Notes under the pieces: generated by a model | The model's database searches: none | What the model saw: the letters and a program-made list of their open reading frames with translations, nothing else | Told to the model about the DNA's origin: nothing | Part shown: in pieces, positions 3,898 to 62,875 of the stretch | Numbering within the stretch: position 1 is the first letter of the stretch | Layout: each line of letters starts with the position of its first letter | DNA from: Isoetes taiwanensis | Taxonomy: Eukaryota > Streptophyta > Lycopodiopsida > Isoetales > Isoetaceae | Direction: 5' to 3' | DNA: 64,000 bases | NCBI GenBank assembly: GCA_021234155.1 | Contig: JAJEKV010000002.1 | Coordinates: 38,927,841 to 38,991,840, forward strand | Position numbers and translations under genes: made by a program

Positions 3898-4005
3898 GCA
3901 TCAGGTTGCCCCTCCATGGGAGTCGCCTGTCCTGCTGCAGTATGTGCACCCATACTAGTCTCAACGTGTTCCATCTTAGCTACTCAAGATCCAAGCCGCA
4001 ACTTA

Positions 4006-6246: not shown

Positions 6247-6371
6247 CCCTACATTTTAAGGGTGCAAACCAGTCCACATCAGCCAACAAAATCAATAGTT
6301 ATGGTAAACCAAAGGAAAAAGAAAAGAACAATTTATTTGGTTGCCGTGGTCTCAGTGTGTACGATGGGTAG

Positions 6372-9300
6372 ATGATAGGAGGCATGGCGCTGCTCTGTAA
6401 TTCCAATCCGTTGTTTGCTGCACAAGCTCCCTCAAATGCCAAGCATAATCATACGAGCGGACGCTGTTGCATCTCTCAAGGTCGTCGTCCTCAGAACAAT
6501 CAATGTCGTGGACGTTCGGAGAACCCAGTAACTCGTTTCCCAGCTTTGCCCAATTTAACTTTAAAGTTTGGTAATCTTTTGTACATATTATCAGTAGCTT
6601 TTACCGATACTAAGCTCGCCCAAGCAGCGACTCTGGAAGCTATTTCAGTCACAGATGCCAAAGTAGGTTCTGATTTGCTTGACAAATCAATAACAGTAAG
6701 CATATCTAATGTCAATGAACTTACCCAAAGTCTGCAATCTCTGCACAGTCTGCTGCAAAAGGCAGAGATTGGAAACAAGTGGTTCCTGGCCACTTTGGAA
6801 AATTTCGTTGTTTTGTTAATTGAAAAGACGAATATATTTACAAAAGAAGCAATCTCTGAATTAGAAAGAGGTTTGCAAACTGTGGATGGATGGTGGAAGC
6901 CAGATGCATCAAGCTTAAAAGAGCTTAATAATTTTGCAAATAAACTGCTGCATGGTCTGGACTCCCCAGATGGGGGAGTTGGTTTTATGGCAAGTCAGCT
7001 CAGTTCATATGCATCTATATTTCAGACATATTTGTATTCTAAGGGAGCAGATTTAAGTATGTCAGTAAAGCATCTGATTTCGGCCGTTGTAGCAGATTTG
7101 GCTGTACAATATGGTAGCCTTTCACAAGATGAAAGACTTGTTGCTGCTACTCTTATTGCTACTGTTGCTGGTGCAGCTGTTTTTAGTGTGTCATCTATAA
7201 GTTTTAAAGGCACGGAAGAGTTCATTGAGGGGCAGAGCCTTCCCCTGAGGTACAATCCTGATGCTATCAATGCCTATTTTAGGACAAAGCCTTCAGATAT
7301 AGTTTTGCGTGCCCTACAAGTAGCATTAAGATGTTCAGTTTTAACAGCAAACGTAATTCTAGATATATATACTGGCAAGCAGAAAGAGAATGAAAGGCTA
7401 CGAGCTACCCAACTAGTGGATTTAATTACAGGGCTTGGTCCAACTGCTATCAAGGTACGTGATTGCAGAATGTTAGAGAATTGTCTTGTTTTTAGCAATC
7501 AGTATTTTTCTCAAGCACTTTTTGCTTTTTCTTTAGTCAATCATGATATTAGAATTTAATGGCTGAATTTAAGTTGGTGGCTGAAATTGTGCAGATTGGC
7601 CAGGCTCTTAGCATTAGACCTGATATTTTGCCTCTTGCATACCTTGAGGAACTCCAAAAGCTCCAAGATAGAGTTCCTCCCTTTTCAAACCAGGAAGCAA
7701 AAATGATTATTCAAGAAGGTTTGGGCAAGTCAGCAGACGAGCTATTTTCTGAGTTCTCAGAGGAGCCTATTGCAGCAGCTTCCCTTGGGCAAGTATGCAA
7801 CCTGTCTGCGCTTGCAACATAACCAATCTATAATTTTTATAAATAAAGTTATATTATTATTTATGTTTTAGGTATACAAGGCAAGATTGCGCAAAACTGG
7901 CAAGGAGGTTGCTGTGAAAGTTCAACGACCTGGTGTATTGGAAGGAATATCTCGTGATCTTTTTCTGCTGAGAGCAGCTGCTGCTTTACTGGAGACTCTT
8001 CCAAATATAAATTCAGACTTTGTTGCTCTTCTTGATAACTGGGCGTTCCGTTTTTTTGATGAGCTAGACTATGTTCAAGAGGTATTAAGTTTGCCTACTT
8101 GTTTTTTTGTGTTTCTATGACACATCATTATTTAATGCTTGCAAACATGGCCTATGTCAAATTCCAGTGTTCAGCTTAATTAAAGCTTATATATGCAGAT
8201 GATAATGATATTGAACAAGTTAGCTCATATAATTTGTTAAATGGTCAGTATGTTGAGGGTTTTGTCTGTGTTTGTTTACACACATTACATCTAATGCTTG
8301 CAAACATCGGGCCATGACAAAGTTCAGTCCAGTCTAATTGAAATTCTGTGCGACGATAATGATGTCTAAGAATTTAGTTTGTAGGATAGTCAACATATTG
8401 ATGGTTCTAAGAACTGAATTTTTGGATTCAGGGGAAGAACCAATTGAAGTTTGCATCTGATATGAGGGGACTACCAAATGTTGTTGTTCCTAAAGTTTAC
8501 ATGGATTACACTTCTCGCAAGGTATCGTATGTGCCCCATTGCAGCTACAGAAAAGTGCTATATAAGACTTGTCAATCTCTTATGTAGGTGTTAACCACTG
8601 AATGGATACAAGGGGAGAAGCTTTCAGAAAGCTCAGCAGCAGACCTTTTGCAACTTATAGCAGTTGCATTAAATTGCTACCTTATGCAGCTTCTTGAGAG
8701 TGGGTTTCTTCATGCAGATCCGCATCCAGGAAATCTCTTACGGACTCATGATGGTCGTCTTTGTGTACTAGATTTTGGCCTGATGACAGAGGTTAGAAAA
8801 ATTCTCTAACTCTGTAGAACCACTCATTTTGCACCAAAATGACCCCCATTAAAATATTTTAGTCTCTATTATGTATTTCCAGGTAACCGAGGATCAAAGA
8901 TACACTTTTGTTGAGTATATTTCTCACTTGGTAAATTCCGATTATTCAAAAGTTGCCGATGATCTTGTACGATTAGGATTTGTGCCGCCAGAACTCGTTG
9001 ATCCAGTAAAAACTGCAGCAGCTGTTCCACAACTTAGTAGAGTTCTTGGGGAGCTTGTCCAAGGTGGTGGTGCACGGAAAATAAATTTTCAGCAGGTATT
9101 GGTTCCTTAGCCTTTCAGCAGAGGCTTTTGCATAATCATCATTCTTTCCTAACCAAGCTGCAACTACACAGATAACAAATGATTTGGCAAAGATATCAGA
9201 GGACTATGTTTTTGTAATCCCACCTTATTTTGCACTGATTCTCCGTGCATTCTCAGTATTGGAAGGCATTGGGCTGGATGCCAATCCAGACTATGCAATT

Positions 9301-10528
9301 GTGGATGAATGTTACCCTTACATTGCGAAGCGTCTCCTAACTGATGACAGGTAATGTGCTGCAACTTATTTTTAGATTTTGAAAGGATAACATGTGCCCT
9401 TGAACATGTCTTTACTTTTATATTCTGAAAGGGTATCATGTCCATTTCCATTTGTTTGGCATCTTAGGGGTCAGGTAGGACTAGTTGTTACGTGAGACTG
9501 AATGCTGTAATGCATTTCTTTAATCAGAACATTTAGCTAATACATCCTGAACTACGAGGAACTTTTTTAACCTTTGACAGTTCCCTATGCATATTTTGCT
9601 TCCAAAGCTGGTACTGATGAAGGATTGTGTTTCAGTCCTCGGGCACGTGCTACTCTCAAGTACTTCTTATATGCGGGAAATGATCAATTGGATGTTCAGA
9701 GAGTAGAGGACATGATTCTGGGCTTCCAGGCATTCCGTCAATCAATGGCTCCAATCAATTCAGGCAATGTGTCGAAAAAGATAACACCAGGTGTGGATTC
9801 TGTTACGAAGGAAGCTTTGCTCACAATTTTTGCTCCAGAAGGCAGTTTTCTTCAAGAACTACTTTTGGCAGAAGTAAGACTTCTTTCTTTTCTTGGACTT
9901 TTTGTTATGGTTCTTTATTTTATGCATTCACCACTATTATGATTAATACAGCTGGTTCGTTCAATTGATGCACTCTCGCGTGAAGCTCTTTCTGAGTTTT
10001 GGCGATTTTTTGCTCTGCGTATTCCTTTTCCTGCTGCACTTTCCATGCCAGGAACATGGCCAATTCCCTTGCCAGGATTTTTCTTGGGCATAGCTCCTGT
10101 TGCGACATTATCTGAAGAGGATCAAAAGTCGCTAGAAACTGTCCGAAGACTATGGATTTTTGTAGAGCCCTGGCTTTTTCAACAGATTACCTCTGCAGGT
10201 ATTAACAGTAATTAGTTTTTTTGATTCAAAACAAAAGGTTGACCAATAACATGAATCTACAGAACTTCAGAAGTTTGCAGTGGGATCAATACCACTGATG
10301 AGGGATCTGTTTCCTGGAGTCATTACAGTGGTGCAAAGGTTCATTGTAATGTTGCTGCAACGCCAAGCACTTCGTTTAGCAGATGATCTGGATGGCAGGG
10401 ATTCAATCAGAGTCTGGAATAGGGACCCCGCTGTTGTTGCCCGCCAGATTCGACCTATTAGATTGTTGCCCAAAGTGAATGCTTCAGATTTGTCAAATCA
10501 GGAAACACCCAAAGGTAAAACTGCTTGA
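6372..10528 (+). CDS. plastid-type ABC1K (UbiB/ADCK-like) atypical protein kinase
   Basis: Ten exons fit GT-AG rules and join to 2,928 bases (975 residues): 6372-7454, 7595-7792, 7872-8081, 8432-8521, 8588-8791, 8883-9095, 9172-9350, 9636-9873, 9952-10198, 10263-10528. An in-frame TAG directly precedes the start; Met5 (6384) is an alternative. Family motifs in order: KIGQ (361-364) of the KxGQ motif, the alanine-rich loop PIAAASLGQ (about 419-427), VAVKVQRPG with Lys443, HADPHPGN (569-576) and LDFGL with Asp589. The N-terminus is Ser/Ala/Arg-rich and poor in acids, like a chloroplast transit peptide. A long N-terminal region of about 290 residues precedes the kinase core. Plant ABC1K proteins of this type act in chloroplasts, often at plastoglobules, on prenylquinone metabolism. 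Phrases such as LPLRYNPDAI and VIPPYFALILRAFSVLEGI recall the ABC1K1/ABC1K3 class, but I cannot name the orthologue. The frame has no breaks, so it is probably functional. Confidence 0.92.
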
Positions 10529-11104
10529 ATCCAAATGGTATAGGCCACTTTGTATCCTAGAATTGCTCTTTTACAATGAATGTGTGCTCCAACAAATTGG
10601 ATGCATAATAGGCATTGTAGGGATGTAGATAAAAGAAGGCTTCTTTCCAGACTGCAAGAAGACGTATAGCAATGTATATCAATTGTTTTAGCCAACATAC
10701 TTTGGGTGTAATTACCGCCCATAAGGGAAGTAAATATGTGCTACTTGGTGCTGCCTGCGAGATTGTGGAATTGTAAATTATTTTCTTTCATGTTCTTGTA
10801 CATTCTTGCAACTCTTTAATCATAGGTTTAGAGTTGACTGTTACAATTCATACCTAGAGTATCGGTAGCAGAGTGTAGATTGATTCGCGTGGAGCTAATT
10901 GGACCAAACTCTTTGGTCAATACTGGGCTTATGTCGGATTGTCTTCCTCGTATTGGGAGGGAGTCTTGTTGATAGTCATAATTTGGCTCGAATGGCAATA
11001 ACATTCTTGTGATCAAATAACTAAAAAAGTGCCCTTCGTAAAACTTATAGACGAGAGTAAGGGCTATCCAAATAGCAGTAGAATCGTCTAAAACAGAGTT
11101 AAGG
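10529..11104 (+). other. 3' flank of the ABC1K gene
   Basis: It should contain the 3' UTR. The AT-rich stretch around 10770-10800 is a plausible polyadenylation area but shows no strict AATAAA. No other gene is seen before the repeat field starts. Confidence 0.4.
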
Positions 11105-11344
11105 CGGACCCTTTTCATTTAAGCTATTCCTCGGCTCCGTCTCGGCCAAGGCCTCGCTTCGGTTTGGACATCATTGGTATTATTCCTCAGCTTGGCCTCT
11201 GCCTTTGGCCGAGGCCTCGCCTCAGTTTGGACAAAAGCAAGCCTACCCATGGTACTATAATTCCAAAGTATCGCCATTAGGAGCTTACTCAACCTCGGCT
11301 TGAATTCGGCCTTGGGCCGAGGCCTCGCCTCGGTCATACACACC

Positions 11345-12160
11345 TACTACTAATTGCAAAGTATCACTCATTGTGAGTTTACTCACACCTACTATCAATT
11401 TTAAAATCTCATCCATTAGAAGCTGACTCACACCTATTGTACTCAACATTCATTTCTCAATCTATGCAGAGCTTACTGCCACTTATTGCCAATTTCAAAG
11501 CATGACTCACACCCACTACCAATTTGAAAGTATCACACATGAAGAGCTGACTCATACCTACTACAATTTCAAAGTATCACCCATGTAGAGCTTATACACA
11601 TCTACCACCAACATCTGTGATGAGGGGCTAACTCATACCTACTACAATTTCAAGGTATACCCCATGTAGAGCTTATACATACCTACCACCAACACCTCTC
11701 AATTCCAAAGTATCATCTATTGATAGCTACTGCCAATTCCAAATTCACACCCATTAGAAGCTGACTTACATCTACTGCCAATTCCAAAGCATCACACATG
11801 AGGAAAGCATCACCCATGTGGCTCAACGTCCATATCGATGTCACTGAACATCCATCTGACAATTTCTGAGACGTTTACTGCCATGTACTACCAATTCTAG
11901 AGAATCACCTTTGAGAAGTCATACCTACTACCCATGGGGAGCTTATTCCCACCAACTACCATTTCCAAAGTATTGTATATTTCGAAAACTTTCTATTTTT
12001 GAACTGAGCTTGCACATCTACTGCTAATTCCAAAGCATCACACATGAGGAAAGCATCACCCATATGGCTCAACATCCAATACTACCAATTCTAAAGAATC
12101 ATCTATTGAGCAGTCACACCTACTACCCATGAGGAGCTTACTTCCACCTACTACCATTTC
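11345..12160 (+). repeat. CCAAT-type minisatellite, array 1
   Basis: Degenerate units of about 40-55 bases of the type CTACTACCAATTCCAAAGTA, then TCACCCATKRGGAGCTTACT, then CACACC. Most units keep CCAATT or its variant and many keep CCCAT(T)GGGAG. Units are diverged and of variable length. Confidence 0.7.
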
Positions 12161-12179: not shown

Positions 12180-13060
12180 AAAACTTTCTATTCTTGGATT
12201 GAGCTTGCAAAGTTTCAAAACTTTTTATATTTAGACCGAGGTACATATCCTTGAGCATCTGGAACATGCCAGAACATTCTATTTTGGCTTTTTCCAAAGT
12301 TTCAAAACACTTTCTATTTTTAGACTGAGGGGCTTACCCATGAGACTTTCTATTTTTGGACTGAGCTGCTTGCTCATTAGCCTTTGAGCATGTAGAGCAT
12401 TCTACTTTGCCTCTTTGCAAATTTTCAACAAACCTTCTATTTTTGGACTGAGGTGTTTATCCATGAGCATCTAGCATATTCTAGAACTATCTAGAACATC
12501 TCATTTTGATTTTTTTGTAATTTCAAAAAAACTTTCTATTTTTGGACTGAGATGCTACCCATGAACATCTGGAACATTCTAGAACATTCTAGAACATTCT
12601 ATTTTGACGATATGGGAAGTTTCAAAACACATTCTATTTTTGGACTGAGGTGCTTACCTTAGCATCTAAACATTCCATAACATTCTATTTTGGCTCCTTA
12701 CAAAGTTCCAGAAAAACTTTTTGTTTTTAGACTGAGGTGGTCACACTGAGTATTTAGAACATTCCAGAGCATTCCACTTTGGCTCCTTGCAAAGTTTCAA
12801 AAAACTTTTTATTTTTAGACTGAGGTGCCTCCCCATAGGCATGTAGATCATTCCAAAATATTCTAGAAGATTCTAGAGCTATCTAGAACATTCTAATGAG
12901 AAGTTCCAAAAAACTTCCTACTTTTAGATTGAGGTGCTTGCTCATGAGCATCTATATCATTCTAAAATGTTCCACAACATTCTAAAAGATTCTGCAACCA
13001 TCTAGACCATTCTAGAACAATATAAAACATTCACGAATTGATTTGCTCTCACGCTTAACT
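12180..13060 (+). repeat. heat-shock-element minisatellite, array 1
   Basis: Units of about 85-90 bases: GAGCATCTGGAACATTCTAG followed by AACATTCTATTTTG, a TTTGCAAAGTTTC block and CTATTTTTAGACTGAGGTGC. The core GGAACATTCTAGAACATTCT is four contiguous nGAAn/nTTCn pentamers. At 12571-12600 the core is extended to six perfect pentamers. Confidence 0.85.
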
Positions 13061-13094
13061 ATATGTGAACTTTTAATTATCTTAACAAATCAAT

Positions 13095-13152
13095 TGACTT
13101 AGTGGTAAGGATTGGGGGGTTTAGAGGGCATGGACTAGGGTTTCAATCCCTC
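13095..13152 (+). repeat. tRNA-like A/B-box unit in module 1
   Basis: TTAGTGGTAAGG (13099-13110) resembles a tRNA A box and GGGTTTCAATCCC (13138-13150) a B box with its T-stem partner. Spacing fits an internal Pol III promoter. No full cloverleaf, so this is SINE-like and not a tRNA gene. Confidence 0.5.
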
Positions 13153-13599
13153 ACAAAACATGAAAAGTTTTGGAAAGGGCTAAGAAGATTCTAGAAGCTT
13201 TTAGAATGTTCTAAAACTTCCTTGAAGATTCAGGAGGCTCTAGAATGTTTTAGAAGTTCCTAGAAGATTTTCGGAGCTTCTAGAAGATTCTAGAAGCTTC
13301 TAGGACCTTCCAAGGACGGATGAGATAGCGCAACGTGGTGCCTTCTCGGCCGTAGAACCTTCCAGGGATCCGACGGGTGAGATAGCGCAACGTGGCGCCT
13401 CCTCAGTCGTCGATGGGGCGTGGAAGACAGACTCATGAACGCTTTATTATATTATTAGAAAAACGGCCGGGCCCTTTTCTTTTGCACCATTCCTCAGCGA
13501 ATGCCGGGGCCTCGCCTCGGTTTGGACATCCTTGGTATTATTCCTCGCATCGGCCTCGGCCTTCGGCCAAGGCCTCGCCTCGGTTTGGGCACATCCATG

Positions 13600-14820
13600 T
13601 AGTCCTACTACCAATTCCAAAGTATCACCTGTTAGTAGCTTACTCAACCTCGGTTCGACCTCGCCTTGCATACAGACCTACTACCACCATCTATTACCAA
13701 TTCCAAACTATCATACATTGGGAGCTTACTCACGCCTACTACCAATTTCAAAGTATCACCCATTGGGAGTTTATTCACACCTACTATCAATTCCAAAGTC
13801 TCACCCATTAGAAGCTGACTCACACTTACTACCAACTATCATCTATTACCAATTCCAAACTATCATACATTGGGAGCTTACTCACGCCTACTACCAATTT
13901 CAAAGTATCACCCATTGGGAGTTTACTCACACCTACTATCAATTCCAAAGTCATTAGAAGCTGACTCACACTTACTACACCAACTATCAATTCCAAACTA
14001 TCACCCATTGGGAGCTTATTCACGCCTACTACTACTTCCAAAGTATCACCCATTGGGAGCTTACTACATCTACTATGAATCCCAAAGTACAACCCCTATA
14101 TCTTCAAGAAACTTCCCACGTTACTCAGCATCCATTGCTCAACCACCCATGAGGAGCTTACTCATGCCCATTACTGAATTCAACGTATCACCCATGAGGA
14201 GCCTACTCACATATACTACACTTCAGAACACTTGACATTCTTATTCATACTTGCTACCGATTCCAAAGTATCATCCATGATGAGCATACTCACACGTACA
14301 CCCATGAGGACCCATACCACATCGACACCCATGAGGACCTTTACCACATATATTACTTGGCATCCATGCATGAGGAGTTTACTCATACCTATTATTAATT
14401 CTGAAGTATTATCCATGAGGAGCCTGCTTACACCTACTACCATGCAAGTCCATATACACACATGCCCTACTACCAATTCTAAAGTATCACTCATGAGGAG
14501 AACACTACGAATTCCAAAGCATCACCTATGAGGATGTCCAGAGCATTTCACATTCTTATTCATACATACTGTTCAACCCTCTATTCTATTACCATCAAAG
14601 TATCATTCATGAGTAGCATACTCACACATTCACCCATGAGGACCCATACCACATCTACACCCACGGGGCCACATCTAGTACCTCTACTACCAATTCTAAA
14701 GTATGCCCATTCTAAAGTACCACCCATGTGAAGCTCACACACCTATCATACCGAGCACACCTACTACCAATTCCAAACTATCACCTATAAGAAGCTCACT
14801 CGCACCTATCACACCTATTG
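13600..14820 (+). repeat. CCAAT-type minisatellite, array 2
   Basis: Units such as ACTACCAATTYCAAAGTATC and ACCCATTGGGAGCTTACTCA repeat clearly between 13605 and 14070; then a variant with CATGAGGAGCYTACTC and ACCCATGAGGACCCATACCA dominates to 14820. Larger blocks are themselves duplicated: 13690-13825 matches 13848-13975. Confidence 0.75.
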
Positions 14821-16920
14821 AGGTGCTTATCCAGGAGCATTTGGAACATTTTAGCACATTCTATTTTGAGTTTTTGCAAAGCTTGAAAAAACTTGCTATT
14901 TTTGGACTTAAGGGCTTGCTATGAGGATCTGGAACATTTTACAACATTCTATTTTGAGGTTTTGCAAAGTTTAAAAAAGCTTGCTATTTTTAGACTGGGG
15001 TGCTTGCTCATGAGCATCTGAAACATTCCAGAATATTCTATTTTGAGTGCTTGCAAAGTTCCACAAAACTTTCTACTTTTAGACTGAGGTGCTTGCCCAT
15101 GAGCATCTGGAACATTCCAGAACATTCTATTTTGAGCTGCTTGTGAAGTTTCAAAAAAGTTGTTGAGATCTTGCCCGTGAGTATCTAACATTCTATTTTG
15201 AGTGTTTGCAAAGTCACAAAAAACTTGCTATTTTTAGATTGAGATGCTTGCCCATGAGCATCTGGAACATTCTAGAATATTCTATTTTGGGTGTTTGCAA
15301 AGTTTCAAAAAACTTTGTATTTTTAGACTGAGGTGCTTGCCCCGGAGTATCTGAAACATTCTAGAACATTCTATTCTGTAAAAAATATTCTATTTTGAGC
15401 TTTTGCAAAGTTTAAAAAAGCTTGCTATTTTTAGAATGGGGTGCTTGCTCATGAGCATCTAGAACATTCCAGAATATTCTATTTTGAATGCTTGCAAAGT
15501 TCCACAAATCTTTCTACTTTTAGACAGAGGTGCTTGCCCACGAGCATCTGGAACATTCCAGAACATTCTATTTTGAGCAGTTTGTGAAGTTTCAAAAAAG
15601 TTGCTAAGGTCTTGCCCATGAGTATCTAACATTCTATTTTGAGTGTTTGCAAAGTCACAAAAAACTTGCTATTTTAGATTGAGGTGCTTGCCCATGAGCA
15701 TCTGGAACATTCTAGAACATTCTATTTTGAGTGTTTGCAAAGTTCCAAAAAACTCTGTATTTTTAGACTGAGATGCTTGCCCCGGAGTACCTGAAACATT
15801 CTAGAATATTCTATTTTTGAGTTTTTTTCAAAACTAAGGTACTTTCTATTTTTAGACTAAGGTGCCTGTCCATGAGCATCTGGAACAATCCAGAACATTA
15901 TATTTTGAGCAGTTTATAAAGTTTAAAAAAAGTTGCTATTTTTAGGATGAGGTCTTGTCCATGAGCATCTGGAACATTTTATTTTGAGTGTTTGCAAAGT
16001 CACAAAAAGCTTCCTATTTTTAGATTGAGGTGCTTGCCCAGGAGCATCTGGAACATTCTAAAACATTCTATTTTGAGCATTTGCAAATTTTTAGAAAACT
16101 TTCCATTTGTAGACTGAGCTACTTTTTATTTTTAGACTGAGCTGCTTGCTTCTGAGCATCTGGAACACTCCAGAACATTGTATTTTGAGCATTTGCAAAG
16201 TTTTAAAGAACTTTCTATTTTTAGACTGAGGTACTTACCCATGAGTATCTGGAACATTCTAGGGCATTTTAGAAGATTCTAAAACCATCTAGAACATTCT
16301 AGAATATTCTAGAGCATTCTATGTTCAGACTGAGCTCTTGCTTATGAGCATCTGGAATATTCTAGAATATTCTATTCTGAGTATTTGCAAAGTTAAAAAA
16401 ACTTGCTATTTTTTTAGACTGAGATGCTTGCCCATGAGCATCTGGAACATTCCAAAATATTCTATTTTGAGTTCTTGCGAAGTTTCAAAAAACTTTCTAT
16501 TTCTAACGTATTTTCTATTTTTAGACTGAGATGCATCTGGCACATTTAGTGTTTGCAAAGTTTTAGAAAACTTTCTACTTTTAAACGAAGGTACTTTTTG
16601 TGTTTAGACTGAAGTGCTTGCCTAGGAGTATCTGGAACATTCTAGAACATTCTATTTTGAGTTTTTGCAAACTTTTAGAAAACTTTCTATTTTTACACTA
16701 AAGTACTTTCTATTTTTAGACTGAGGTGCTTGCCCATCAGCATCTGGAACATTCCAAAACATTCTATTTTGAGCGTTTGCAAAATTTCAAAAAAATTTCT
16801 ATTTTTAGACTGATGTGTTTACCCATGGGCATCTTGAACATTCTAGAACATTCTAGAAGCTTCTAGAAGATGCTAGAGCATTCTAGACATTCTAGAACAT
16901 GCTAGAGCATCCTTAAATTA
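14820..16920 (+). repeat. heat-shock-element minisatellite, array 2
   Basis: About two dozen units of about 85-100 bases. GGAACATTCCAGAACATTCT at 15109-15128 and again near 15550 are perfect four-pentamer heat-shock elements; others read GGAACATTCTAGAATATTCT. Blocks of several units are duplicated (14930-15270 resembles 15390-15720). The array ends in dense TTCTAGAA words at 16835-16915. Confidence 0.85.
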
Positions 16921-16959
16921 TTTAGCTCTCACCCTTAACTATAATGAATTTTCTATTTT

Positions 16960-17018
16960 ATAGTTAAGCCAATGCTTATGGGGGTTTTGGAGGGCACGAA
17001 CCAGGATTCGAATCCCCT
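16960..17018 (+). repeat. tRNA-like A/B-box unit in module 2
   Basis: TAGTTAAGCCAATGCTTATGG (16961 on) stands in A-box position and GGATTCGAATCCCC (17004-17017) is a near-perfect B box with a self-complementary T-stem. It is placed exactly as in module 1. Confidence 0.5.
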
Positions 17019-17065
17019 CCATAGCCAGAAAGTTTTAAAATAAATGGGAGATAAGAAGGGCCGAG

Positions 17066-17090
17066 ATTGCACCACGTGGCGCCTCCTCCA
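17066..17090. promoter_or_regulatory. G-box (CACGTG) in module 2
   Basis: ACCACGTGGCGCC contains the palindromic G-box core bound by plant bZIP and bHLH factors. It recurs after the HSE array in each module. Binding is inferred from the motif only. Confidence 0.4.
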
Positions 17091-17317
17091 CCATCGATAG
17101 GGCGTGGAAGACAGATGGATAGACAGATAGACCGGCCCTCTTCTTTTCTCATTACTCGGCTTGTCGGGGCCTCGCCTCGATTTCGGAACCTTTAGTAGTA
17201 TTCCTTAGCTCGGCCTCGGCCTGGCCTTGCCTCGGTTTGGACAAAAGTATGCCTGCCACCCATGTACTCTTACTACCAATTCCAAAGCATCACCCGCAAG
17301 GAGCTGACTCACATGTA

Positions 17318-18879
17318 AACCATCGTTCAATTATTTTTAGAATATGTCTTAATTTTTGGACTAAAATTAGATTGCCGCTTTCCGTTGTTTTCTTTCTTGT
17401 TTTGCGCTTTTGGTTTCCCGCCCGTGTGCTCAAATTTTTTTGACTTTTTCCCTTTCCCTCACGTTCTCGCGTTTTCTTTTTCCCTCGCCTTCTTTTCTTT
17501 TCTTTCTATTTTGCATTTTCTCTCATGCGCTTCTGCGTTTTCCTCTTCTCTGGCCCATCTCTATTTTGCCGCAGAAGAAAGGAGAAAAGCAGGATGGGCG
17601 CCGCTCCAATACCTAGGGCGATTCCGGCCGCTCCAACGCCTGGGGCGATTCCGGCAGCAGTTAGGAGAGTAAGAAGGCGAGACTTAGGCGCCTTCTGCTA
17701 TGTAAAACCCCTGTTTCCTGCATCCGGCCCACTGCTCTGTGCCCCTGCTCTGCCATAGCTCCAAGCTTCGAGCTTCAATGTATTACTAATTATTAATAAA
17801 TGCAATGCAGAGATGGAGCTGGAGCATATGCATGTGACACAGGTATTTGTTTCATTTCTGGATTTCAGAAAACTTGAGGGCATTCTAGACTTGAGAAGAA
17901 GCTCTAAAGGCGCAGTTGTGCAGGTTTTTACACCCACTTCCGTCCAATTTTTGCAGGCTCTCATTGTTTTGCAGGTTATGGTGCATGCAAAGGATTATTT
18001 GCATTGTAAGATTTGATTTGCTGGCATATCTACACATTTCGGATTTGCAGAAAGAGCACAAAGTACTCCAATCCATCTTAAAAGCTCTGCAAGCTTCAAT
18101 TTGCTACTGGATCTGTTTGTTAAGGCTTTGCAAAAAAGATCACAGGGTATTCCAATCGGTGTAAAAACTCCCCTTTGAATGCAGGGGATTATTTGCATTG
18201 TAAGCTAATTTGCCGCCGGATCTGCTCAATGGGAGTTTACAGAAATAGCACAGAGTATTCCAATCGATTTTAAAGCATCCTGCACCAATTTTTGGTTGCA
18301 TAGCATCAATCGCAGCCATTTTTTGTTGTTCCATTTGCATAATATCAAATCTGCAGCCAATTTTGTTGTTCCATTATAATGTCAAATCTACAACTACTTT
18401 AAATTGATAAATTGATGTATAGCAGGAGCGTTTATTGGATTATCAGGAGTGTTTATTGGATTATAGCTTGTGAAGGGAAGGAAAACAAGCAGTTTTAGCA
18501 AGCATTAGTTTTTGTTGTGCTTGTAAAACCGCGCTTGGCGCGATTTAACACTGTCTACACTTTTAACAATTGTCTCTTTTATAGTGTTTTAAGAGGACGG
18601 TTCTAGATTGAAGAAGGTTAAAAACGTGGTTAAAAGATTGCCAATTGAAAATTTTATGTTTTATTTATTCTAATATTTGCTTGATTTTGTTAAGGAAGTA
18701 GTTATTTTTCTTGTGATGTCTTATTGTTTGAAGTATATTTAGTATGTAATGCTATATAATCTCTTGATGTTTTGAAATGAAAAAAAAAAAGAACTGAAAA
18801 GCACTAGATTTGCTAAAAATAATGCTTATTTGGCGCGATTTTGGAATAGACATAATCCCAAAATAAATGAATGATGGTT
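17318..18879. mobile_element. non-autonomous TIR DNA transposon, 1.56 kb, in module 3
   Basis: The ends are inverted repeats matching at 27 of 32 positions (consensus of the outer part AACCATCRTTCAWTTATTTT, inner part ..GA.TATGTCT), flanked by TGTA on both sides (17314-17317 and 18880-18883). The flanking satellite rejoins correctly when the element is removed: GAGCTGACTCACA on the left and TGTACTCAATATTCATTTG on the right correspond to the uninterrupted GCTGACTCACACCTATTGTA and CTCAACATTCATTT at 11420-11455. The interior has a long pyrimidine tract (17385-17545), a short GC-rich frame, degenerate internal repeats (GGATTATTTGCATTGTAAG at 17991 and 18185; CCAATC..TTTAAA words at 18069, 18148 and 18257) and an A-run at 18779-18791. 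There is no transposase. The superfamily is not assigned. The interior could be captured host sequence. Confidence 0.75.
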
Positions 18880-18883
18880 TGTA

Positions 18884-20000
18884 CTCAATATTCATTTGTC
18901 AATTTGCGAGGAGCTTACACCAGCTACTGCCAATTAGGAAAGTTGACTCACACTTACCACCAGTTTGAAAGTATCATATATGAGGACCTTGACTTATATC
19001 TACTACAATGTTTAAGTGTCATCCATGTGGAGTTTATACACACCTGTTACCAACGCCTACTAAAAATTCCAAAGTATCACCCATTGGAAGCTCACTCACA
19101 TCTACTATCAATTCCAAGGTTTCACCCATTAGAATTTGGCTCACACCTACCATACTCAACATCCATTTGGCATTTTAAAGTGTCACCCATGCGGAGTCTA
19201 TACACACCTACTCTCAACGCCTACTACCAATTCCAAAGTATCACCCACTGGGAGCCCACTCACACCTACTATCCAAGGTTTCACCCATTAGAAGCTGACT
19301 CACACCTACTATACTCAACATCCATTTGGCAATCTATGAGGAGCTTACTGCCACCTATAGTCTCATCCATTAGAAGTTGATTCAATGTCAATTCTAAAGT
19401 ACAAGGTATCACCCATGTAGAGCTTATACACACCTACTATTAACACCTATCAATTCCAAAGTGTCATCCATTAGCTTACTCATACGTATTGCCATCTCTA
19501 AAGTTGCACTCATTAGAAGTTGACTTGCACCTAGTGTCAATTCCAAAGCATCACACATGAGGAAAGCATCACCCATGTGGCTTAATATTCATATTGATGT
19601 CACTCAACATTCATTTGACAATTCATGAGAAGCCACATGAATTGTCATGAATGTTAAGCCACATGAATTGTCATGAATTGTCATGAAGCCACACAATATC
19701 AATTCTAAATAATCACCTATTGAGGAGTCATACACCCATGTGGCTTAACATTCATATCCATATTACTCAACATTCATTTGTCATAAACCCATGATGACCT
19801 TTATCACATCTACTCCCTGTTCACATGAGGAGTTTACTCATACCTACTCCAATTTCAGAGTGTATCACATGAGGAGCGGACTTACATCTACTACCAATTC
19901 CAAGAAACATCCATTTGAAGCTTACACACATCTATCATACCCATCACACTTACTACCGATTCCAAAGTATCACCCATGAGAAGCTGACATGCACCTATCA
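18884..20000 (+). repeat. CCAAT-type minisatellite, array 3
   Basis: It continues the array interrupted at 17317. Units carry CCAATTCCAAAGTATCACCC and CATCCATTTGGCA. A short sub-repeat with CCACATGAATTGTCATGAA occurs two to three times at 19617-19690. Confidence 0.7.
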
Positions 20001-20009
20001 CACCTACTA

Positions 20010-20840
20010 AGGTGCTTATTTAGGAGCATCTGGAACATTCTAGAACATTGTATTTTGAGTTTTTGCAATAAAAAAATTTGCTATTTTTAGACTAAGATGC
20101 TTGCCCATGAGCATCTGTAACATTTTAAAACATTCTATTTTGAGTTTTTGCAAAGTTTCCAAAAAACTTGTTATTTTTAGAATGAGTTGCTTGCCCATGA
20201 GCATCTGGAACATCTTAGAATATTCTATTATGAGGGTTTGCAAAGTTTCAGAGAACTTGCTATTTTTAGACTGAGGTATATGTCCATGCTTTGCAAAGTT
20301 TCATAAAACTTGCTATTTTTAGACTGAGATGCTTGCCCATGAGCATCTGGAACATTCTAGAATATTCTATTTTGAGTATTTGCAAAGTTCCAAAAAGCTT
20401 GCTATTTTTAGACTGACGTGCTTATCTAGGAGCATCTGGAAGATTCTAGAACATTCTATTTTGGGTGTTTGCAAAGTTCCAAAAAACTTTTTATTTTTAG
20501 ATTGAGGTGCTTGACCAGGAGCATCTGGAACTTTCTAGAACATTCTACTTTGAGTTTCTAAAAAGGTTTAAAAAACTTTCTATTTATAGACTAAGTACTT
20601 TATATTTTTAGACTGAGGTGCTTACCCATGAGCATCTTGCACATTCCAGAACATTCTATTCTGGAACATTCGGAAGATTCTTTAAAAACTGTCTATTTTG
20701 AGATTGAGGAACTTTCCACGAGCATCTACACATTCTAGAACATTCCACAACATTTTATCTGAAAAATTTTCGATCTTAGATTCAGGTGCTTGCATAAAGC
20801 ATATAGAACTCTCTCTGCCACATGTTTGAAAAGTTGCTAT
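20010..20840 (+). repeat. heat-shock-element minisatellite, array 3
   Basis: Same unit as arrays 1 and 2. From 20085 on, this stretch and everything to 23160 recur at 60936-64000. Confidence 0.8.
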
Positions 20841-20865
20841 TTTTGGATGGACCTACTTACCCACG

Positions 20866-20880
20866 GCCAAGATCGTGCCA
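20866..20880. promoter_or_regulatory. perfect palindromic G-box GCCACGTGGC
   Basis: The ten-base palindrome GCCACGTGGC is the strong form of the plant G-box/ABRE core. Further CACGTG motifs lie at about 21095-21108 (two close together) and 21198-21203. Function is inferred from the motif. Confidence 0.4.
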
Positions 20881-20977
20881 CGTGGCAACATCCTGGCCTT
20901 TGATAGGTGTGGGAGACATGCACATGCGCCTAGAGCATCCACTTTAACTATGTTTGAGCCATGTATTTCATAAATAA

Positions 20978-21036
20978 TGCTTGGTCTAATGGTTGGAATT
21001 GGGGGGTTTGGGGGCTAGACTTTGGTTTGAATCCCC
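20978..21036 (+). repeat. tRNA-like A/B-box unit in module 3
   Basis: CTTGGTCTAATGGTTGGAATT (20980-21000) resembles the D-arm of a tRNA and TGGTTTGAATCCCC (21023-21036) the T-arm. It is the best of the tRNA-like units and recurs at 61829-61890. Confidence 0.55.
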
Positions 21037-21189
21037 ATGCACACAAAAATTTTGAATAGTGGTTGGAAAAAAGGCGGTGGGCCTGGGATCGCGCCACGTG
21101 ACACGTGAAACGATGCATTAGGACCATCCGGATCGCGCCAAGTGGTATCACAGAGACCATTAATGGGGGTGGAGTTAGATTCGTGATTC

Positions 21190-22020
21190 ACGTGGTACTT
21201 TCAGTGTTTGGAAAATCTAAAAAGACTTGCTATTTTTAGACTGAGGTGCTTGCACATGATCACCTAGAACATTCTAAAACATTATGTTTTGAGTGTTTGC
21301 AAAGTTTTAAAAAACTTTCTATTTTTAGACTGACGCTTGTCTAGGACCACCTCGAACTTCTAGAACATTCTATTTTGAGTTTTTGCAAAGTTCTAGAAAA
21401 CTTCCTATTTTTAGACTAAAGTACTTTCTATTTTTAGACTGCAGTGCTTGCCAATGAGCATCTGAAACATTCCAGAACATTCTACTTTGAGCATTTGCAA
21501 AGTTTCAAAAAACTTGCTATTTGTAGACCGAGGTGCCTGCCCATGAGCATCTGGAACATTCCAGAACATTCTGTTTTGAGTATTTACAATGTTTCAAAAA
21601 ACTTGCTATTTTTAAATTGAGGTGCCTGCCCATGAACATCTAGGATATTCTAGAATGTTCTGGAATATTCTATTTGAGTGTTGCCCATGAGCATCTGGGC
21701 TTGTCTATGAGCATTTGGAACATTCTAGAACATTCTATTTTGAGTGTTTGCAAAGTTTTAGAAAACTTTCTATTTTTAGACTGAGGTGCTTACCCATGAG
21801 CATTTGGAACATTCTAGAACATTCTATTTTGAGTATTTGTAAAGTTTCAAAAAACTTGCTATTTTTAGACTGGGGTGCTTGCCCATGAGCAGCTGGAACA
21901 TTCTAGAACAGTCTGTTTTGAGTATTTGCAAAGTTTCAAAAAACTTTATTTTTAAACTGAGGTGCCTGCCCATGAACATCTGCAACATTTAGAACATTCT
22001 ATTTTGAGTGTTTGCAAAGT
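21190..22020 (+). repeat. heat-shock-element minisatellite, array 4
   Basis: About nine further units of the same family run to within 210 bases of the copia primer binding site. They are followed by a G-box-like CCATGTGGCGCC segment (22052) and another B-box-like word GGGTTCAAATCCC (22188-22200). Confidence 0.8.
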
Positions 22021-22228
22021 GGAGGAGGGGAGATGGAGGGCCGAGATCGTGCCATGTGGCGCCTCATCGGCTGATTGTCGAGTCATCTGGAGCTCTGCTA
22101 TGGTTGTCGCAGAAGGAATCTTGGAAGCAAGATTTGTTGAAGTTGTGTGACAAAGATTGTTGGCGGCCGAGTAGCGGAAATTAAATTTGGGTTCAAATCC
22201 CAAGCTCAAGATATTTTGTTTATTACAG

Positions 22229-22239
22229 TGGTATCAGAG
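22229..22239 (+). other. tRNA-iMet primer binding site of the copia element
   Basis: TGGTATCAGAG follows TTTATTACA with one spacer base, the standard LTR-end and primer-site junction. It fixes the 3' end of an LTR at about 22227, so the repeat field upstream is in or next to that LTR. Confidence 0.8.
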
Positions 22240-22259
22240 TCAGATTCACCAGGATAGCT

Positions 22260-23023
22260 ACAAGATTTGGAGCACCGCTATTGAATACTTTGGATGTTTT
22301 TAAAGGCGAAGGAGGGTTTCAAGTCTGGAAAGAGACAATTCATTTTGATGTTTGAAGGGCTTTGGGGTATAGTAGACCCGTCTGCCACCTACCATTGAGC
22401 TGAAGGCTACTGTCAAATCTGAGGATGAAGCTGGTAGCAGTGCAGATGATGGTGCTGTTAAAGTTAAGGTATCAGATGCTCCCAAGGTACTTCAAGCCAA
22501 GTATATCATTATGTGAAAGGTAAGTCCTGGAATTTTGTTTAAAATCAGAGGGCTTTGTCCTAAGGAGATGTGGAAGTACATGATAAATCAATATGAGAGG
22601 AAATCATCTTCACAGATAGATGTGCTAGAGTCGGAATTAAGGAAATTGAAATATGATGGTCAAATCAGTGTCGATGATTTGTTCCAAAGATTTGATGGCT
22701 TGTGTGCAGACCTTGAGGCTGCTAGTGCAGGGTTATCCAAAGAGGCACACATAAATAATGTAGCTAAGATGTTTTCAGATATGGAGAATCTCTCTACTTT
22801 AATCAGGCAGGTGACAAAAGACAGAGATCATGCAGAGAGAATAGTTCGAACTGAACTTGAGGAAAAGAAAGTTATACAAGCTGAGATAGGTGAGTCCTCT
22901 GAACTACTTGTTGTTAAAAAAGGGAAGGGAAAGCTTCAAGATAGTACGGAGAATAGAGCACCAGCTGGAACTTGCTTTAAGTGTGGACATCATGGGCATT
23001 TTAAGTCAAATTGTCCAAAGGTT
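22260..23023 (+). pseudogene. Ty1/copia gag, N-terminal part
   Basis: The start resembles copia gag: a VFKGEGGFQVWK phrase, then, after a one-base shift in the run GGAAAGAGAC, LMFEGLWGIVD. A frame with no early break runs 22535-23044. It contains the gag helical region (LCPKEMWKYMINQYERK, FQRFDGLCADLEAA) and the zinc knuckle CFKCGHHGHFKSNC (C-x2-C-x4-H-x4-C, about 22974-23015). Gag coats the RNA and forms the particle; the knuckle binds nucleic acid. The frame is cut by the LINE at 23024 and resumes at 25044. No pol follows, so this copy is dead. Confidence 0.8.
23008..23023 (+). repeat. left target-site duplication of the LINE insertion
   Basis: AAATTGTCCAAAGGTT here is repeated exactly at 25041-25056, immediately after the A-run of the inserted LINE. 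The leading AAA of the right copy merges with that run, so 13-16 bases are duplicated. Confidence 0.85.
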
Positions 23024-25040
23024 TTCAAGATCCTATCCATTTGAGAAGACTGCAGCAACTCAAGATACACCTGGTACACCGACTCACCAGCCCACTCCCA
23101 ATAAGTCTAAAAGAACTCCACAGGGATGCCATCCAGCCCAAGACATTTATCCTTGGCCATGCACATACATGCCACAGCTAAATCCTCTCACGGAGGAGCT
23201 CTGCTCCAAGCTCTCCTTGTGATGAGGTGAGAATAGATGGCTTAACAGCTCCCAAAACAAGCTCCTGCATCTCCTGTTCATAAGAAGAGTGCGCTGTGCA
23301 AAAAACCCTGAGAAATGGGCATGCACATACCTCTGCAAATCAGCGGGATCCTCCAAACTCCGGCCATCAGGCAAAGCAAGGGGCGCCATGGATCTTTGCA
23401 TATCGCCCCATTTTGTACCTAGGCTGCTCACGAAGAACAAGCGAACTTGTGTCCCCCTCCTTCAACCGGTGGGGCCGCCTTCACACGTGCCTCCCGCACT
23501 TTAACCTGCTCGAAGCAACAATACGTTTGCTGCTTGCATTCTCCCTAATGCCATCGGAAAGGCTGCTTTAGAATCTTCTCCAACTCTGATAGAGACCATG
23601 CAACTCCTGCCGCTCTGCGCACCTGCTTGCCTACCAAATACCTTGGCAAAAGCGGCTTCACCACAGGCCATACCAAGGCGGTTGTTAAAGTGGCTTGGTG
23701 GAAGTGTCTCGCCCGGGAGGATGGGGGCTTAGGCCATTACGGATTTTGGCTGCATAGTGGGTGTTGGTCTCCAAGTTTGTTTGGAGCGATGCGAGGGATG
23801 GAGCATCTTCTCAGTCTTGTATTTGTTGTTGCGATCTCTTAAGCCATTGTGTGGCATTTGGGAAGCCGTCTGTGCATGTGGAGTTGCCACAGGCGCTTTG
23901 TTGTATGGTCTCACGGCCTTTCCACATGCATCCCCTTTTTCGCGGGGGGTGTTGCGGGCTTGGGATCATGTGCGTGTGCTCTTCGGCTAGATTATGCCTC
24001 GGTTTATCACCACTCTTCTCCTTTCTTGTGGGTTCCTCTACCCCCTGCGCACTTGCCCTTGGCGCCCTTTGTGCATGCATGCTCGGGGCCTTGAGGGCCC
24101 GTTGGAGGCAGTCTTTGTGCTCACCTTGGAGGATTGGTATTGGGGTGGTCAGGCTAACCCGTGGGAGTTCTTTTCGAGCTCGCTTTCGCTGAGGCGTGGT
24201 GGGCTATCGGGAACTGCGTGGTGGGGAGTATTCCGTTACACATACCTATAGTCCCTGGGGATGATGTGGTGGTGCAGGTTTGGAAGGTTCATCCGGATGT
24301 TGTGTCTTCTTGCTTTGTCGCGGTCTTCTTCTTTGGGTGCTGGCTATTCATGACTGCTTGCCCCCCGCCAGGGCAAGTGGTCTCTGCGACTTCGGGTTCT
24401 CGATGGGCTTCGGTTTGGGCGTGGACATGGAGCTCACTTCCCATAGAAGGTTAGAGTATACGTGGCGGTGGTGCACCCGATGTATCGGGGTGAATGCCCT
24501 TGTGAGTCGGTTTATTTTGGGGTGTGGGCCCTCTTTGCCCTTGTTGTGGCCTTCATCGTGAGGCTGTGGAGCATTATGCGGTTTTATGCCCTCACTTGCG
24601 GCACGGGATTGGGTTAGGGCTCTGTTTGGTGAGATTGACTAGCCGGCCGATTCTTTGCTTCATGTGTATCCGGTGCTTGGCGCTCTTGCGGCGGCAGCGG
24701 CAGTTGGTGTGGCTGATTTGGGCGGCGGCGGTTGTGGACCTTTCAAAGGGATTGACCCTCTGAGCCCCTCGATTCCTCGACTTAGGTACAAGCTATTTCA
24801 AAGCTTTCTGGTGTTCCCGGGATTAGTAGAGCGGAAGTTTGCCATTTGGCGGGACTTCTAGGGTGTTGTAGATGGTGATGGTCGGTTTGTACAGCAGTAG
24901 AGTTGCAGTTTTTCTGTGAGTTTGTTGTGGAGTGTCGAGGTATCGCTGTCTCTTTGGGGCAGTTCTCCTTCCTCCTCACTTGCTTTGTAACATTACCATT
25001 CTTTTAATGTATTGATGACACAGTTCTTCAAAAAAAAAAA
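23024..25040 (+). mobile_element. LINE insertion with inverted 5' part and poly(A) tail
   Basis: About 2.0 kb flanked by a 13-16-base target duplication. Left part (23024 to about 23610) reads on the minus strand: VREARVKAAPPVE, SSLGTKWGDMQRSM, LPDGRSLEDPADLQ and, in a neighbouring frame, MAKDKC..DGIP, i.e. the region between endonuclease and reverse transcriptase. Right part (about 23630-25040) reads on the plus strand: VAWWKCLAREDGGLG (post-thumb motif), then CPCCGLHREAVEHYAVLC (zf-RVT zinc ribbon, about 24528-24580), then a 3' UTR ending in an A-run (25030-25043). The catalytic core between them is missing. This arrangement is typical of 5' inversion by twin priming. All frames are broken. 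Confidence 0.75.
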
Positions 25041-60935: not shown

Positions 60936-60939
60936 TTTT

Positions 60940-61660
60940 AGACTAAGATGCTTGCCACCCAGGCATCTGTAACATTTAAAACATTCTATTTTGAGTTTTT
61001 GCAAAGTTTAAAAACTTGTTATTTTTAGAATGAGTTGCTTGCCCATATGAGCATCTGGAACATCTTGGAAATATTCTATTATGAGGGTTTGCAAAGTTTG
61101 AACTTGCTATTTTTAGGCCGAGGTATATGTCATGCTTTTACAAAGTTTCATAAAACTTGCTATTTTTAAACTGAGATGCTTGCCCACTTGAGCATCACGG
61201 AACATTCTAGAATATTCTATTTGAGTATTTGCAAAGTTCAAAAACTTGCTATTTTAGGTGGCGTGCTTATCTAGGAGCATCTGGAAGATTCTAGAACATT
61301 CTATTTTGGGTGTTTGCAAAGTTCCAAAAACTTTTTATTTTTAGATTGAGGTGCTTGACGGGAGCATGGAACTTTTCTGAACATTCTACAACTTTGAAGG
61401 TTTCTAAAAGGTTTAAAAAACTTTTCCTATTTATAGACTAAGTACTTTATATTTTTAGAGTGAGATTGCTTACCCATGAGCATCTTGCATTCGAGAACAT
61501 TCTATTACGGAACATTAGGAAAGATTCTTTAAAAAGCTGTCTATTTTGAGATTGAGGAACTTTCCCGCGAGCATCTACATTCTAGAACATTCCACAACAT
61601 TTTATCACGAAAAATTTTTGATCTAGATTAGTGCTTGCATAAAGCATATAGAACTCTATA
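60940..61660 (+). repeat. heat-shock-element minisatellite, copy of array 3
   Basis: Retains units such as GGAAGATTCTAGAACATTCT and CATTCTAGAATATTCT. CATCTGG of the first copy is CATCACGG here at 61193-61200. Confidence 0.75.
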
Positions 61661-61828
61661 CGCACATGTTTGAAAAGTTATATTTTGGATGGACCTACTT
61701 ACCCACGGCCAAGATGGGTACCCGCGTGGCAACATCACGGCCTTTGATAGGTGTGGGAGACATGCACATCTTTTCAGAGCATCACACGCTTGCCCCAACT
61801 ATGTTTGAGCCATGTATTTCATAAATAA

Positions 61829-61890
61829 TGCTTAGTCTAATGGTTGGAATTACTTGGGGGTTTGGGGGCTAGACTTTGGTTGAATCCCCA
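61829..61890 (+). repeat. tRNA-like A/B-box unit, copy of 20978-21036
   Basis: CTTAGTCTAATGGTTGGAATT and TTGGTTGAATCCCC are kept, with a TACTT insertion between them. Confidence 0.5.
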
Positions 61891-62039
61891 TGCACACAAA
61901 AATTTTTGAATGAGTGGTTGGAAAAAGCGGTGGGCGCAGGGATGCAGCGCCCGCATTGACCACGATGAAGCGATACATTAGGACCATTCAGGATGGCATA
62001 GAGAGTGATAATTATCCCGCGAGACCATTAATGGGGTGG

Positions 62040-62875
62040 AGTTAGATTAAGTGATTCGTGGTACTTTGAGTGTTTGGAAAATCCTAAAAGACTTGTATTT
62101 TAAATTTGAGGTGCTGCACATGATCACCTAGAACATTCTAAAACATTATGTTTTGAGTGTTTGCAAAGTTTTAAAACTTTCTATTTACTAGGCGGCGGCT
62201 TGTCTGGACTATCTCGAACTTCTAGAACATTCTATTTTGAGTTTTTTGCAAGTTCTAAACTTCCCTGTGCTGGAGCTAAAGTACTTTCTATTTTTTAGAG
62301 TACTTGATTAGCGCGATGAGCATCCCCGAAACATTCGAGAACATTCTACTTTGAGCATTTGCAAAGTTTCAAAAACTTGCTATTTGTAGGCCAGAGGTGC
62401 ACCTTGTGAGCATCTGGAACATTCCGAGGAACATTTTGAGTATTTACATTTCCAAAAAACTTGCTATTTTTAAATTGAGGTGCACCCATGAACATCTAGG
62501 ATATTCTAGAATGTTCTGGGTATTCTATTTGAGTGTTGCCACATGAGCATGCGGGCTTGTCTATGAGCATTTGGAACATTCTAGAACATTCTATTTTGAG
62601 TGTTTGCAAAGTTTTAGAAAACTTTCTATTTATTTTTTAAGTGAGGGTGCTTACCCATGAGCATTTTGGAACATTCTAGAACATTCTATTTTTGAGTATT
62701 TGTATGAAGTTTCAAAAAACTTGCTATTTTTAGGCAGGGTGCTTGCCATGGCAGTGGAACATTCTAGAACGATACATTTTGGAAGTATTTGCAGTTTCAA
62801 AAACTTTATTTTAAGCTAGGGTGCACGCCCATGAACATGCGCAACATTTAGAACATTCTATTTTGAGTGTTTGCA
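62040..62875 (+). repeat. heat-shock-element minisatellite, copy of array 4
   Basis: Perfect GGAACATTCTAGAACATTCT elements at about 62571-62590 and 62668-62688, with the same unit order as 21190-22020. Confidence 0.75.

What the first reader, a model, noticed from the sequence alone, without database searches (positions are those of the whole stretch)
12180..22020. Minisatellite built from perfect heat-shock elements
The unit core GGAACATTCTAGAACATTCT is four contiguous, alternately inverted nGAAn pentamers, the exact binding-site grammar of heat-shock factors (three pentamers suffice). At 12571-12600 there are six in a row, and dense TTCTAGAA words close two arrays. The pattern recurs in dozens of units of about 85-90 bases over nearly 10 kb, and again at 60940-62875. 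Keeping this dyad while the rest of the unit drifts suggests more than chance. Heat-induced transcription or HSF sequestration, as with human satellite III, is an inference.
Basis: partly seen in the sequence, partly recalled or inferred. Interest (0 to 1): 0.85.

Follow-up and report, generated by a model that had tools for sequence, protein, structure and literature searches.

The report
Heat-shock-element arrays in Isoetes repeats
In what appears to be the quillwort Isoetes taiwanensis, several families of repeated DNA carry chains of perfect heat-shock-factor binding sites a short way upstream of a TATA-like box, and the arrays seen here are expanded copies of such a block; this suggests, but does not prove, that heat switches these repeats on.

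Summary
In detail: window 12180-22020 holds 31 chains of three or more alternating nGAAn pentamers, against 0.24 in shuffles. The claim that the dyad is kept while the rest drifts is not supported: GAA/TTC columns are not significantly better conserved than base-matched columns (P 0.05-0.15), and intact four-pentamer units equal the independence expectation.

The genome matches Isoetes taiwanensis in size and contig number. The plant HSFA2/HSFA3 ChIP motif TTCTAGAAnnTTCT has 23,888 matches, against 643 for the reversed pattern. The 89-bp arrays belong to a non-coding composite element and lead into a TATA-like box and a tRNA-like block. Searching with that block alone, without any HSE, 35 of 40 loci have an HSE chain upstream; a second subfamily gives 20 of 20. 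An LTR family has a five-pentamer HSE 71 bp upstream of TATATAA.

Best reading: transposon-type promoter modules that bind HSF, as in ONSEN and Caenorhabditis Helitrons, tandemly amplified and decaying here. HSF binding and heat response are untested.

The parts
12180..13040 (+). Array 1 of about 89-98 bp units with HSE core
12572..12599 (+). six-pentamer HSE chain
13055..13070 (+). TATA-like box TTAACTATATGTGAAC downstream of array 1
   Evidence: sequence; same block is conserved
13094..13149 (+). tRNA-like block with A-box-like and B-box-like words
   Evidence: ARAGORN and Rfam do not call it a tRNA
13183..13303 (+). decamer block (TTCTAGAANN type) with a five-pentamer chain at 13278
13439..13458 (+). 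3' end of the composite element (ACGCTTTATTATATTATTAG)
   Evidence: by comparison with L022, L037, L038, L039, L044
13679..14088 (+). 45-bp repeat array of the composite
   Evidence: landmark order
14819..16920 (+). Array 2, about 89-bp HSE units
16836..16868 (+). seven-pentamer HSE chain closing array 2
16934..16949 (+). TATA-like box downstream of array 2
16970..17015 (+). tRNA-like block; A-box part missing in this copy, B-box-like GGATTCGAATCC kept
20000..20745 (+). Array 3a, HSE units
20943..20959 (+). TATA-like stretch (TTTAACTATGTTTGAGC)
   Evidence: sequence
20981..21034 (+). tRNA-like block
21196..22020 (+). Array 3b, HSE units
60936..62875 (+). Array 4: difference-rich duplicate of 20085-22020

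Best explanation
The arrays are the upstream regulatory part of a non-coding, repeated (probably mobile) composite element of this genome. Its usual order is GC-rich dyad, 45-bp repeats, 89-bp HSE units, HSE decamer cluster, TATA-like box, tRNA-like A/B-box block, conserved tail. HSF trimers would bind the HSE chains, mainly the cluster that ends about 60 bp upstream of the TATA-like box, and switch on transcription under heat, as shown for the ONSEN LTR of Arabidopsis. The 89-bp units are then extra copies of HSE-bearing DNA made by tandem duplication that now drift nearly neutrally. SHOWN: HSE grammar, genome-wide excess, recurrent placement relative to TATA-like boxes in two tRNA-like subfamilies and one LTR family. 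INFERRED: HSF binding, heat induction, which polymerase, mobility of the composite.
For: Excess over shuffles in the window. Genome matches: GAAnnTTCnnGAAnnTTCnnGAA 7,338 vs 108 for the reversed pattern; TTCTAGAANNTTCT 23,888 vs 643. With the tRNA-like block alone as query (no HSE in it), 35 of 40 fetched loci (of 42 matches listed) have a chain of 3 or more upstream, and 34 of the 93 such chains start 150 to 101 bases before the A box. The TATA-like block lies outside the query and is the best conserved upstream block (0.922); TATA start to CAA is 33 bp, A to B box 42 bp, median gap from HSE to TATA-like box 57 bp in the 28 of 30 aligned rows where both were found. Second subfamily: 20 of 20 fetched loci (of 40 listed) have HSE chains, TATA-like word at about -35 in 17 of 20. 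LTR family: five-pentamer HSE 71 bp before TATATAA, paired LTRs, 5-bp target duplications in 3 of 6 pairs. HSF genes present.
Against: Column conservation does not significantly single out GAA/TTC positions in the 89-bp units (P 0.084, 0.052, 0.154 for three sets), in the LTR (the HSE window is equalled or beaten by 99 of 496 windows with 24 rows and by 216 of 496 with 23) or in the second subfamily (P 0.078). In the window's own family the free NN positions of the decamers are nearly as conserved as TTC/GAA (difference 0.06, CI 0.00-0.13 at offset 10; 0.03, CI -0.03 to 0.10 at offset 20), as plain tandem decamer duplication would give. Loci within a subfamily are related copies and are the best-scoring of 1,475 and 2,215 rough candidates, so 35 of 40 and 20 of 20 are not independent events. 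No expression or binding data. The genome excess partly reflects copy number of a few families, and a long chain counts several times.
Confidence: 0.55

Rival explanations
1. Neutral tandem repeat: a 10-bp palindromic word (GAACATTCTA) and the 89-bp unit around it were amplified by slippage and unequal exchange; the match to the HSE grammar is a by-product with no role.
For: HSE columns not significantly more conserved; four-pentamer units at the independence expectation, 98 of 258 = 0.380 vs 0.388; NN nearly as conserved as TTC/GAA in this family.
Against: Same grammar at promoter position in an LTR family that gave no BLAST match to the window and no match over 200 bp to the other sampled groups; in the second subfamily NN is freer than TTC/GAA (difference 0.21, CI 0.13-0.26, 8 loci), although column conservation there is not significant; recurrent distance to the TATA-like box.
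Confidence: 0.3
2. HSF sink or heat-responsive satellite: thousands of HSE chains titrate HSF or seed stress bodies, as human satellite III does.
For: 23,888 motif matches against 16 HSF-domain matches; up to 13 tripartite HSEs in one kilobase here.
Against: Sites sampled are dispersed in repeats with promoter-like anatomy, though the second subfamily also occurs in short tandem runs; no dosage data.
Confidence: 0.1
3. The HSE arrays regulate the neighbouring ABC1-type kinase gene, as insertions of heat-responsive transposons can do.
For: ABC1-family exons on the same strand at 7658-8800; the arrays begin about 3.4 kb downstream.
Against: The same arrays occur at many other places; no expression data.
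Confidence: 0.05

Closest known systems
ONSEN (ATCOPIA78), Arabidopsis heat-activated Copia (PMC3907296, passages read)
   Same: A heat response element in the LTR couples a retrotransposon to HSF; HSFA2 binding to the LTR was shown there by EMSA.
   Different: [quoted passage not shown] here there are thousands of chains in several families, and a tRNA-like composite that is not a Copia. No HSF test here.
Caenorhabditis Helitrons carrying clustered HSEs (PMC6927752, passages read)
   Same: Dense, tandem-like HSEs dispersed by transposons; [quoted passage not shown]
   Different: Animals, one transposon class, HSF-1 ChIP available. Here a land plant, an LTR family and tRNA-like composites; Helitron ends were not looked for.
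Human satellite III (recalled; review PMC8535310 seen only in the search listing)
   Same: Tandem DNA with HSF sites.
   Different: Here units are about 89 bp, arrays are short and attached to a TATA-like/tRNA-like block.
Plant tRNA-derived SINEs (recalled)
   Same: A and B boxes with a TATA-like box about 33 bp upstream of CAA, the geometry of plant Pol III genes (recalled).
   Different: ARAGORN and Rfam see no tRNA; long upstream HSE arrays; target duplications not established.

Membership tests
Heat-shock element | At least three contiguous alternately inverted nGAAn pentamers | tested here: met
Heat-shock element | Match to the plant HSFA2/A3 in vivo motif TTCtaGAAnnTTCt | tested here: met
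   33 matches in the window, 29 in the four arrays and 4 in 13183-13303; motif from PMC10230730
Heat-shock element | Binding by HSF | not testable with these tools
   none
ONSEN-like heat-responsive LTR retrotransposon | Paired LTRs with target duplication | tested here: met
   for the separate LTR family only: 3 of 6 pairs with a clear 5-bp duplication; not for the array-bearing composite
ONSEN-like heat-responsive LTR retrotransposon | HSE in promoter position of the LTR | tested here: met
   71 bp before TATATAA in the consensus and in the 4 of 6 5' LTRs where the script found both; 15 of 20 LTRs fetched by whole-LTR similarity keep all five pentamers
ONSEN-like heat-responsive LTR retrotransposon | Copia superfamily | tested here: inconclusive
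   only weak SH3_Tf2-1 matches (best E 0.0024, 18.4 bits, cut-off 30), which point to Ty3 type
ONSEN-like heat-responsive LTR retrotransposon | Heat-induced transcription | not testable with these tools
   none
tRNA-derived SINE | A and B boxes at Pol III spacing | tested here: met
   A to B box 42 bp, TATA-like 33 bp upstream of CAA in the 30-row alignment
tRNA-derived SINE | Recognisable tRNA homology | tested here: not met
   ARAGORN 0 genes in 9 sources; Rfam 0 matches in 4 sources at gathering score
tRNA-derived SINE | Target-site duplications | not tested
   5' ends not defined
Helitron with HSEs | Helitron termini or Rep-helicase | not tested
   no dedicated search was made

The most novel reading that the evidence does not exclude
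A lycophyte genome in which HSF has been recruited many thousand-fold by unrelated transposon promoters, including a tRNA-like (Pol III-type) non-coding element driven by HSF from an upstream HSE array, so that heat switches on a genome-wide wave of non-coding RNA and loads HSF on repeats.
Probability: 0.2. Interest if true: 0.82.

Novelty: new variant of a known kind. Interest (0 to 1): 0.6.

Why it matters
Heat-responsive transposons with HSEs are known from ONSEN in Arabidopsis and from Caenorhabditis Helitrons. A seed-free plant with some 24,000 matches to the HSFA2-type motif, placed at promoter distance in several repeat families, would make transposon capture of the heat response testable at genome scale, and would ask how a plant with few HSF genes copes with such a load. 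Coupling of HSEs to a tRNA-like promoter would be unusual.

Tried and rejected
Copia LTR as carrier of the arrays: rejected. The Copia fragment (primer site at about 22222, gag at 22517-23044) abuts array 3b. Apart from a 95% copy and the window's own duplicate, which span the junction, other relatives match only from about 22103 or later, two matches on one contig (C1050) from 22067. So it most likely inserted beside the array.

tRNA or Rfam family: no hits. Ends of the composite: the 3' end recurs, the 5' side varies (pyrimidine tracts, GC dyad), so no transposon class could be assigned.

Decamer test: one search mixed a selected with an unselected measure and is not used. In one search the L029-type value was inflated by mixed strands; it was repeated with strands oriented and only that value is used. 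LTR mismatch test from a list ranked by mismatch (72 perfect and 28 one-mismatch rows of 313): 2 of 28 mismatches in HSE columns, P 0.019 by events but 0.35 by distinct changes; not relied on.

Dropped rows: of 42 tRNA-like matches 40 were fetched. In one search the A-box search fell back to a default or shifted place for some loci (for example L045, L050, L055, L059, L063, L065, L074, L084), so their distances are off by 10-20 bases. Of the 40, 26 were put into the alignment and 14 left out by choice (L045, L049, L050, L055, L056, L059, L065, L074, L075, L080-L084), together with 2 window stretches, L038 and L039; all five loci without an HSE chain are among those left out. Five of the six LTR pairs were chosen from perfect HSE-block matches, and the sixth had one such block, so their intact HSEs are by selection; the script cut one LTR (L097) short, so that pair was not compared. 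The less biased figure is 15 of 20 (20 of 40 listed).

Literature: searches listed no report of HSE arrays in Isoetes repeats; the genome paper's main text has no 'heat shock', 'satellite', 'tandem repeat' or 'HSF'. The library holds open-licence PMC papers only.

Full report
What is there. The window lies in a 1,658,258,908-base genome of 1110 contigs. Size and contig number fit Isoetes taiwanensis (1658.30 Mb, 204 scaffolds plus 909 unplaced contigs; PMC8566536, passages). Arrays of units of about 89 bp lie at 12180-13040, 14819-16920, 20000-20745 and 21196-22020. Chains of phased nGAAn pentamers are far above shuffles there and chains of three or more are absent from 1-11400 and 22021-60939. 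The densest kilobase has 13 tripartite HSEs.

Is the dyad conserved? I collected 393 unit matches from the window and 28 loci, of which 288 distinct ones cover at least 66 of 87 columns. Conservation of the 12 GAA/TTC columns is 0.924 against a base-matched null of 0.891 +- 0.025 (P 0.084); window alone P 0.052; loci found with a query lacking the HSE (20 loci less L026, which overlaps L004) P 0.154. The G of the first GAA is among the more variable positions (0.76). Units with all four pentamers intact are 98 of 258, 0.380, against 0.388 under independence.

Where else the grammar occurs. The chain of five pentamers has 7,338 matches in the genome against 108 for the reversed pattern; TTCTAGAANNTTCT has 23,888 against 643. 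A long chain counts several times, on both strands, so these are matches and not loci. Sixteen stretches around listed five-pentamer sites (chosen from the first contigs of the list, not at random) fall into three groups by BLAST: an LTR family (L033, L034, L035, L041), a family with HSE decamers and a tRNA-like block (L029-L032, L036, L040, L042, L043), and relatives of the window element (L037-L039, L044). Five of 16 carry 89-bp-type or window-like units over several hundred bases at most.

Anatomy of the carrier. In sense orientation the usual order of landmarks is GC dyad, 45-bp repeats, 89-bp HSE units, tRNA-like block, CACGTGGC-type box; not every locus shows all of them, and some show 45-bp repeats again after the array. 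After the tRNA-like block come stretches like GATCGCGCCACGTGGCGC and CGTCGATGGGGCGTGG and a 3' end like GGACGCTATTTCTTTATAATAT, after which flanks differ (L022, L037, L038, L039, L044 and window 13439). Several copies lack 89-bp units and have a pyrimidine tract, a short HSE cluster, the TATA-like box and the tRNA-like block (seven printed). Hence the proximal cluster looks like the basic module and the 89-bp array like an extension (inference).

Test of association with a query that holds no HSE. A 98-base tRNA-like query gave 42 matches out of 1,475 rough candidates. Forty were fetched with about 450 bases upstream: 35 of 40 have a chain of 3 or more pentamers, and 34 of the 93 chains start 150 to 101 bases before the A box. 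L045, L049, L056, L074 and L075 have none. In an alignment of 30 rows (26 of the 40, two window stretches, L038, L039) the TATA-like stretch, outside the query, is the best conserved upstream block (0.922), the HSE decamers 0.73-0.86. The gap from the last TTCnnGAA to the TATA-like word has median 57; in 18 of 28 rows it is 17, 37, 57, 67 or 87, i.e. it changes by tens. In the second subfamily a 140-base query without HSE gave 40 listed matches of 2,215 rough candidates; 20 were fetched and all 20 have chains. In 17 of 20 one starts at -117 to -106 (typically -112, four pentamers), so it ends about 59 bases before the TATA-like word at about -35, which was seen in 17 of 20. Copies within a subfamily are related and are the best-scoring ones, so these are not independent events.

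LTR family. An LTR of about 519 bp (TGTGACGACC...GTTCATGACA) holds GAAGGTTCTAGAATGTTCTAGAA 71 bases before TATATAA. Sixty-one bases around the HSE have 313 matches with up to 3 mismatches; among the 100 listed there are eight same-strand pairs 5.28-5.46 kb apart. Six LTR pairs were fetched; CTAAA, GTTAC and GATAT duplications flank three of them. Of twenty LTRs fetched by whole-LTR similarity (of 40 listed), 15 keep the five-pentamer chain and the other five each have one broken pentamer. The HSE window is not unusually conserved there. Assignment to Ty3 type is weak (SH3_Tf2-1, E 0.0024, below cut-off).

Decamer grammar. If HSF binding shapes the clusters, TTC and GAA should be better kept than the NN between GAA and TTC. 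In the second subfamily this holds (difference 0.21, CI 0.13-0.26, 8 loci); in the window's own family it is marginal (0.06, CI 0.00-0.13).

Reading. Promoter-distance placement in three families, two of them related through the tRNA-like block and one without BLAST match to them, together with the exact in vivo motif of Arabidopsis HSFA2/A3, is best explained by transposon-type promoters using HSF, as ONSEN does (PMC3907296, passages) and as Caenorhabditis Helitrons do (PMC6927752, passages). The 89-bp arrays are an amplified form that now decays. Lack of column constraint is expected for dead copies and does not decide the point for living ones; it does mean that no function of the array at this locus has been shown. 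The tRNA-like block with a TATA-like box 33 bases upstream of CAA has the geometry of plant Pol III genes (recalled), which opens the bolder reading of a heat-driven Pol III-type element.

Limits. No other plant genome, no expression and no binding data were available. Candidate counts of the genome search are rough. The genome excess of the motif depends on copy number of a few families.

Noticed in passing
60936-64000: Difference-rich duplicate of 20085-23144 (85% identity; 346 substitutions, 104 deleted and 109 inserted bases). The published Isoetes assembly used nanopore reads and LR_Gapcloser gap filling, so this may be a poorly polished gap fill rather than a true divergent copy.
   Followed up: partly
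22103-23044: Copia-type fragment: short LTR, primer site TGGTATCAGAG at about 22222, gag with a CCHC knuckle at 22517-23044 (weak Pfam scores); a Pol_BBD piece at 38516-39265. Ten genome relatives have 84-88% gag identity over nearly the whole piece, nine of them without a stop inside.
   Followed up: partly
7658-8800: Exons of an ABC1-type kinase gene upstream of the arrays; the 395-aa open frame at 6372-7559 may be its first exon (inference; no Pfam match).
   Followed up: partly
G000:C907:37245502-37248374: Copies of the second HSE and tRNA-like subfamily (L030 type) repeat in tandem at about 1.36 kb spacing.
   Followed up: no
L034:900-965: The LTR also holds a tRNA-like stretch on the opposite strand, upstream of the HSE in LTR sense.
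   Followed up: no
alignment A2, gaps: Distance from the last HSE to the TATA-like box changes mostly by tens of bases (18 of 28 rows), which would keep the helical face.
   Followed up: partly
13460-13600; L021:230-620: GC-rich dyad of the type GGGCCCGGCC...GGCCGGGCCC at the 5' side of the composite, a possible hairpin.
   Followed up: no
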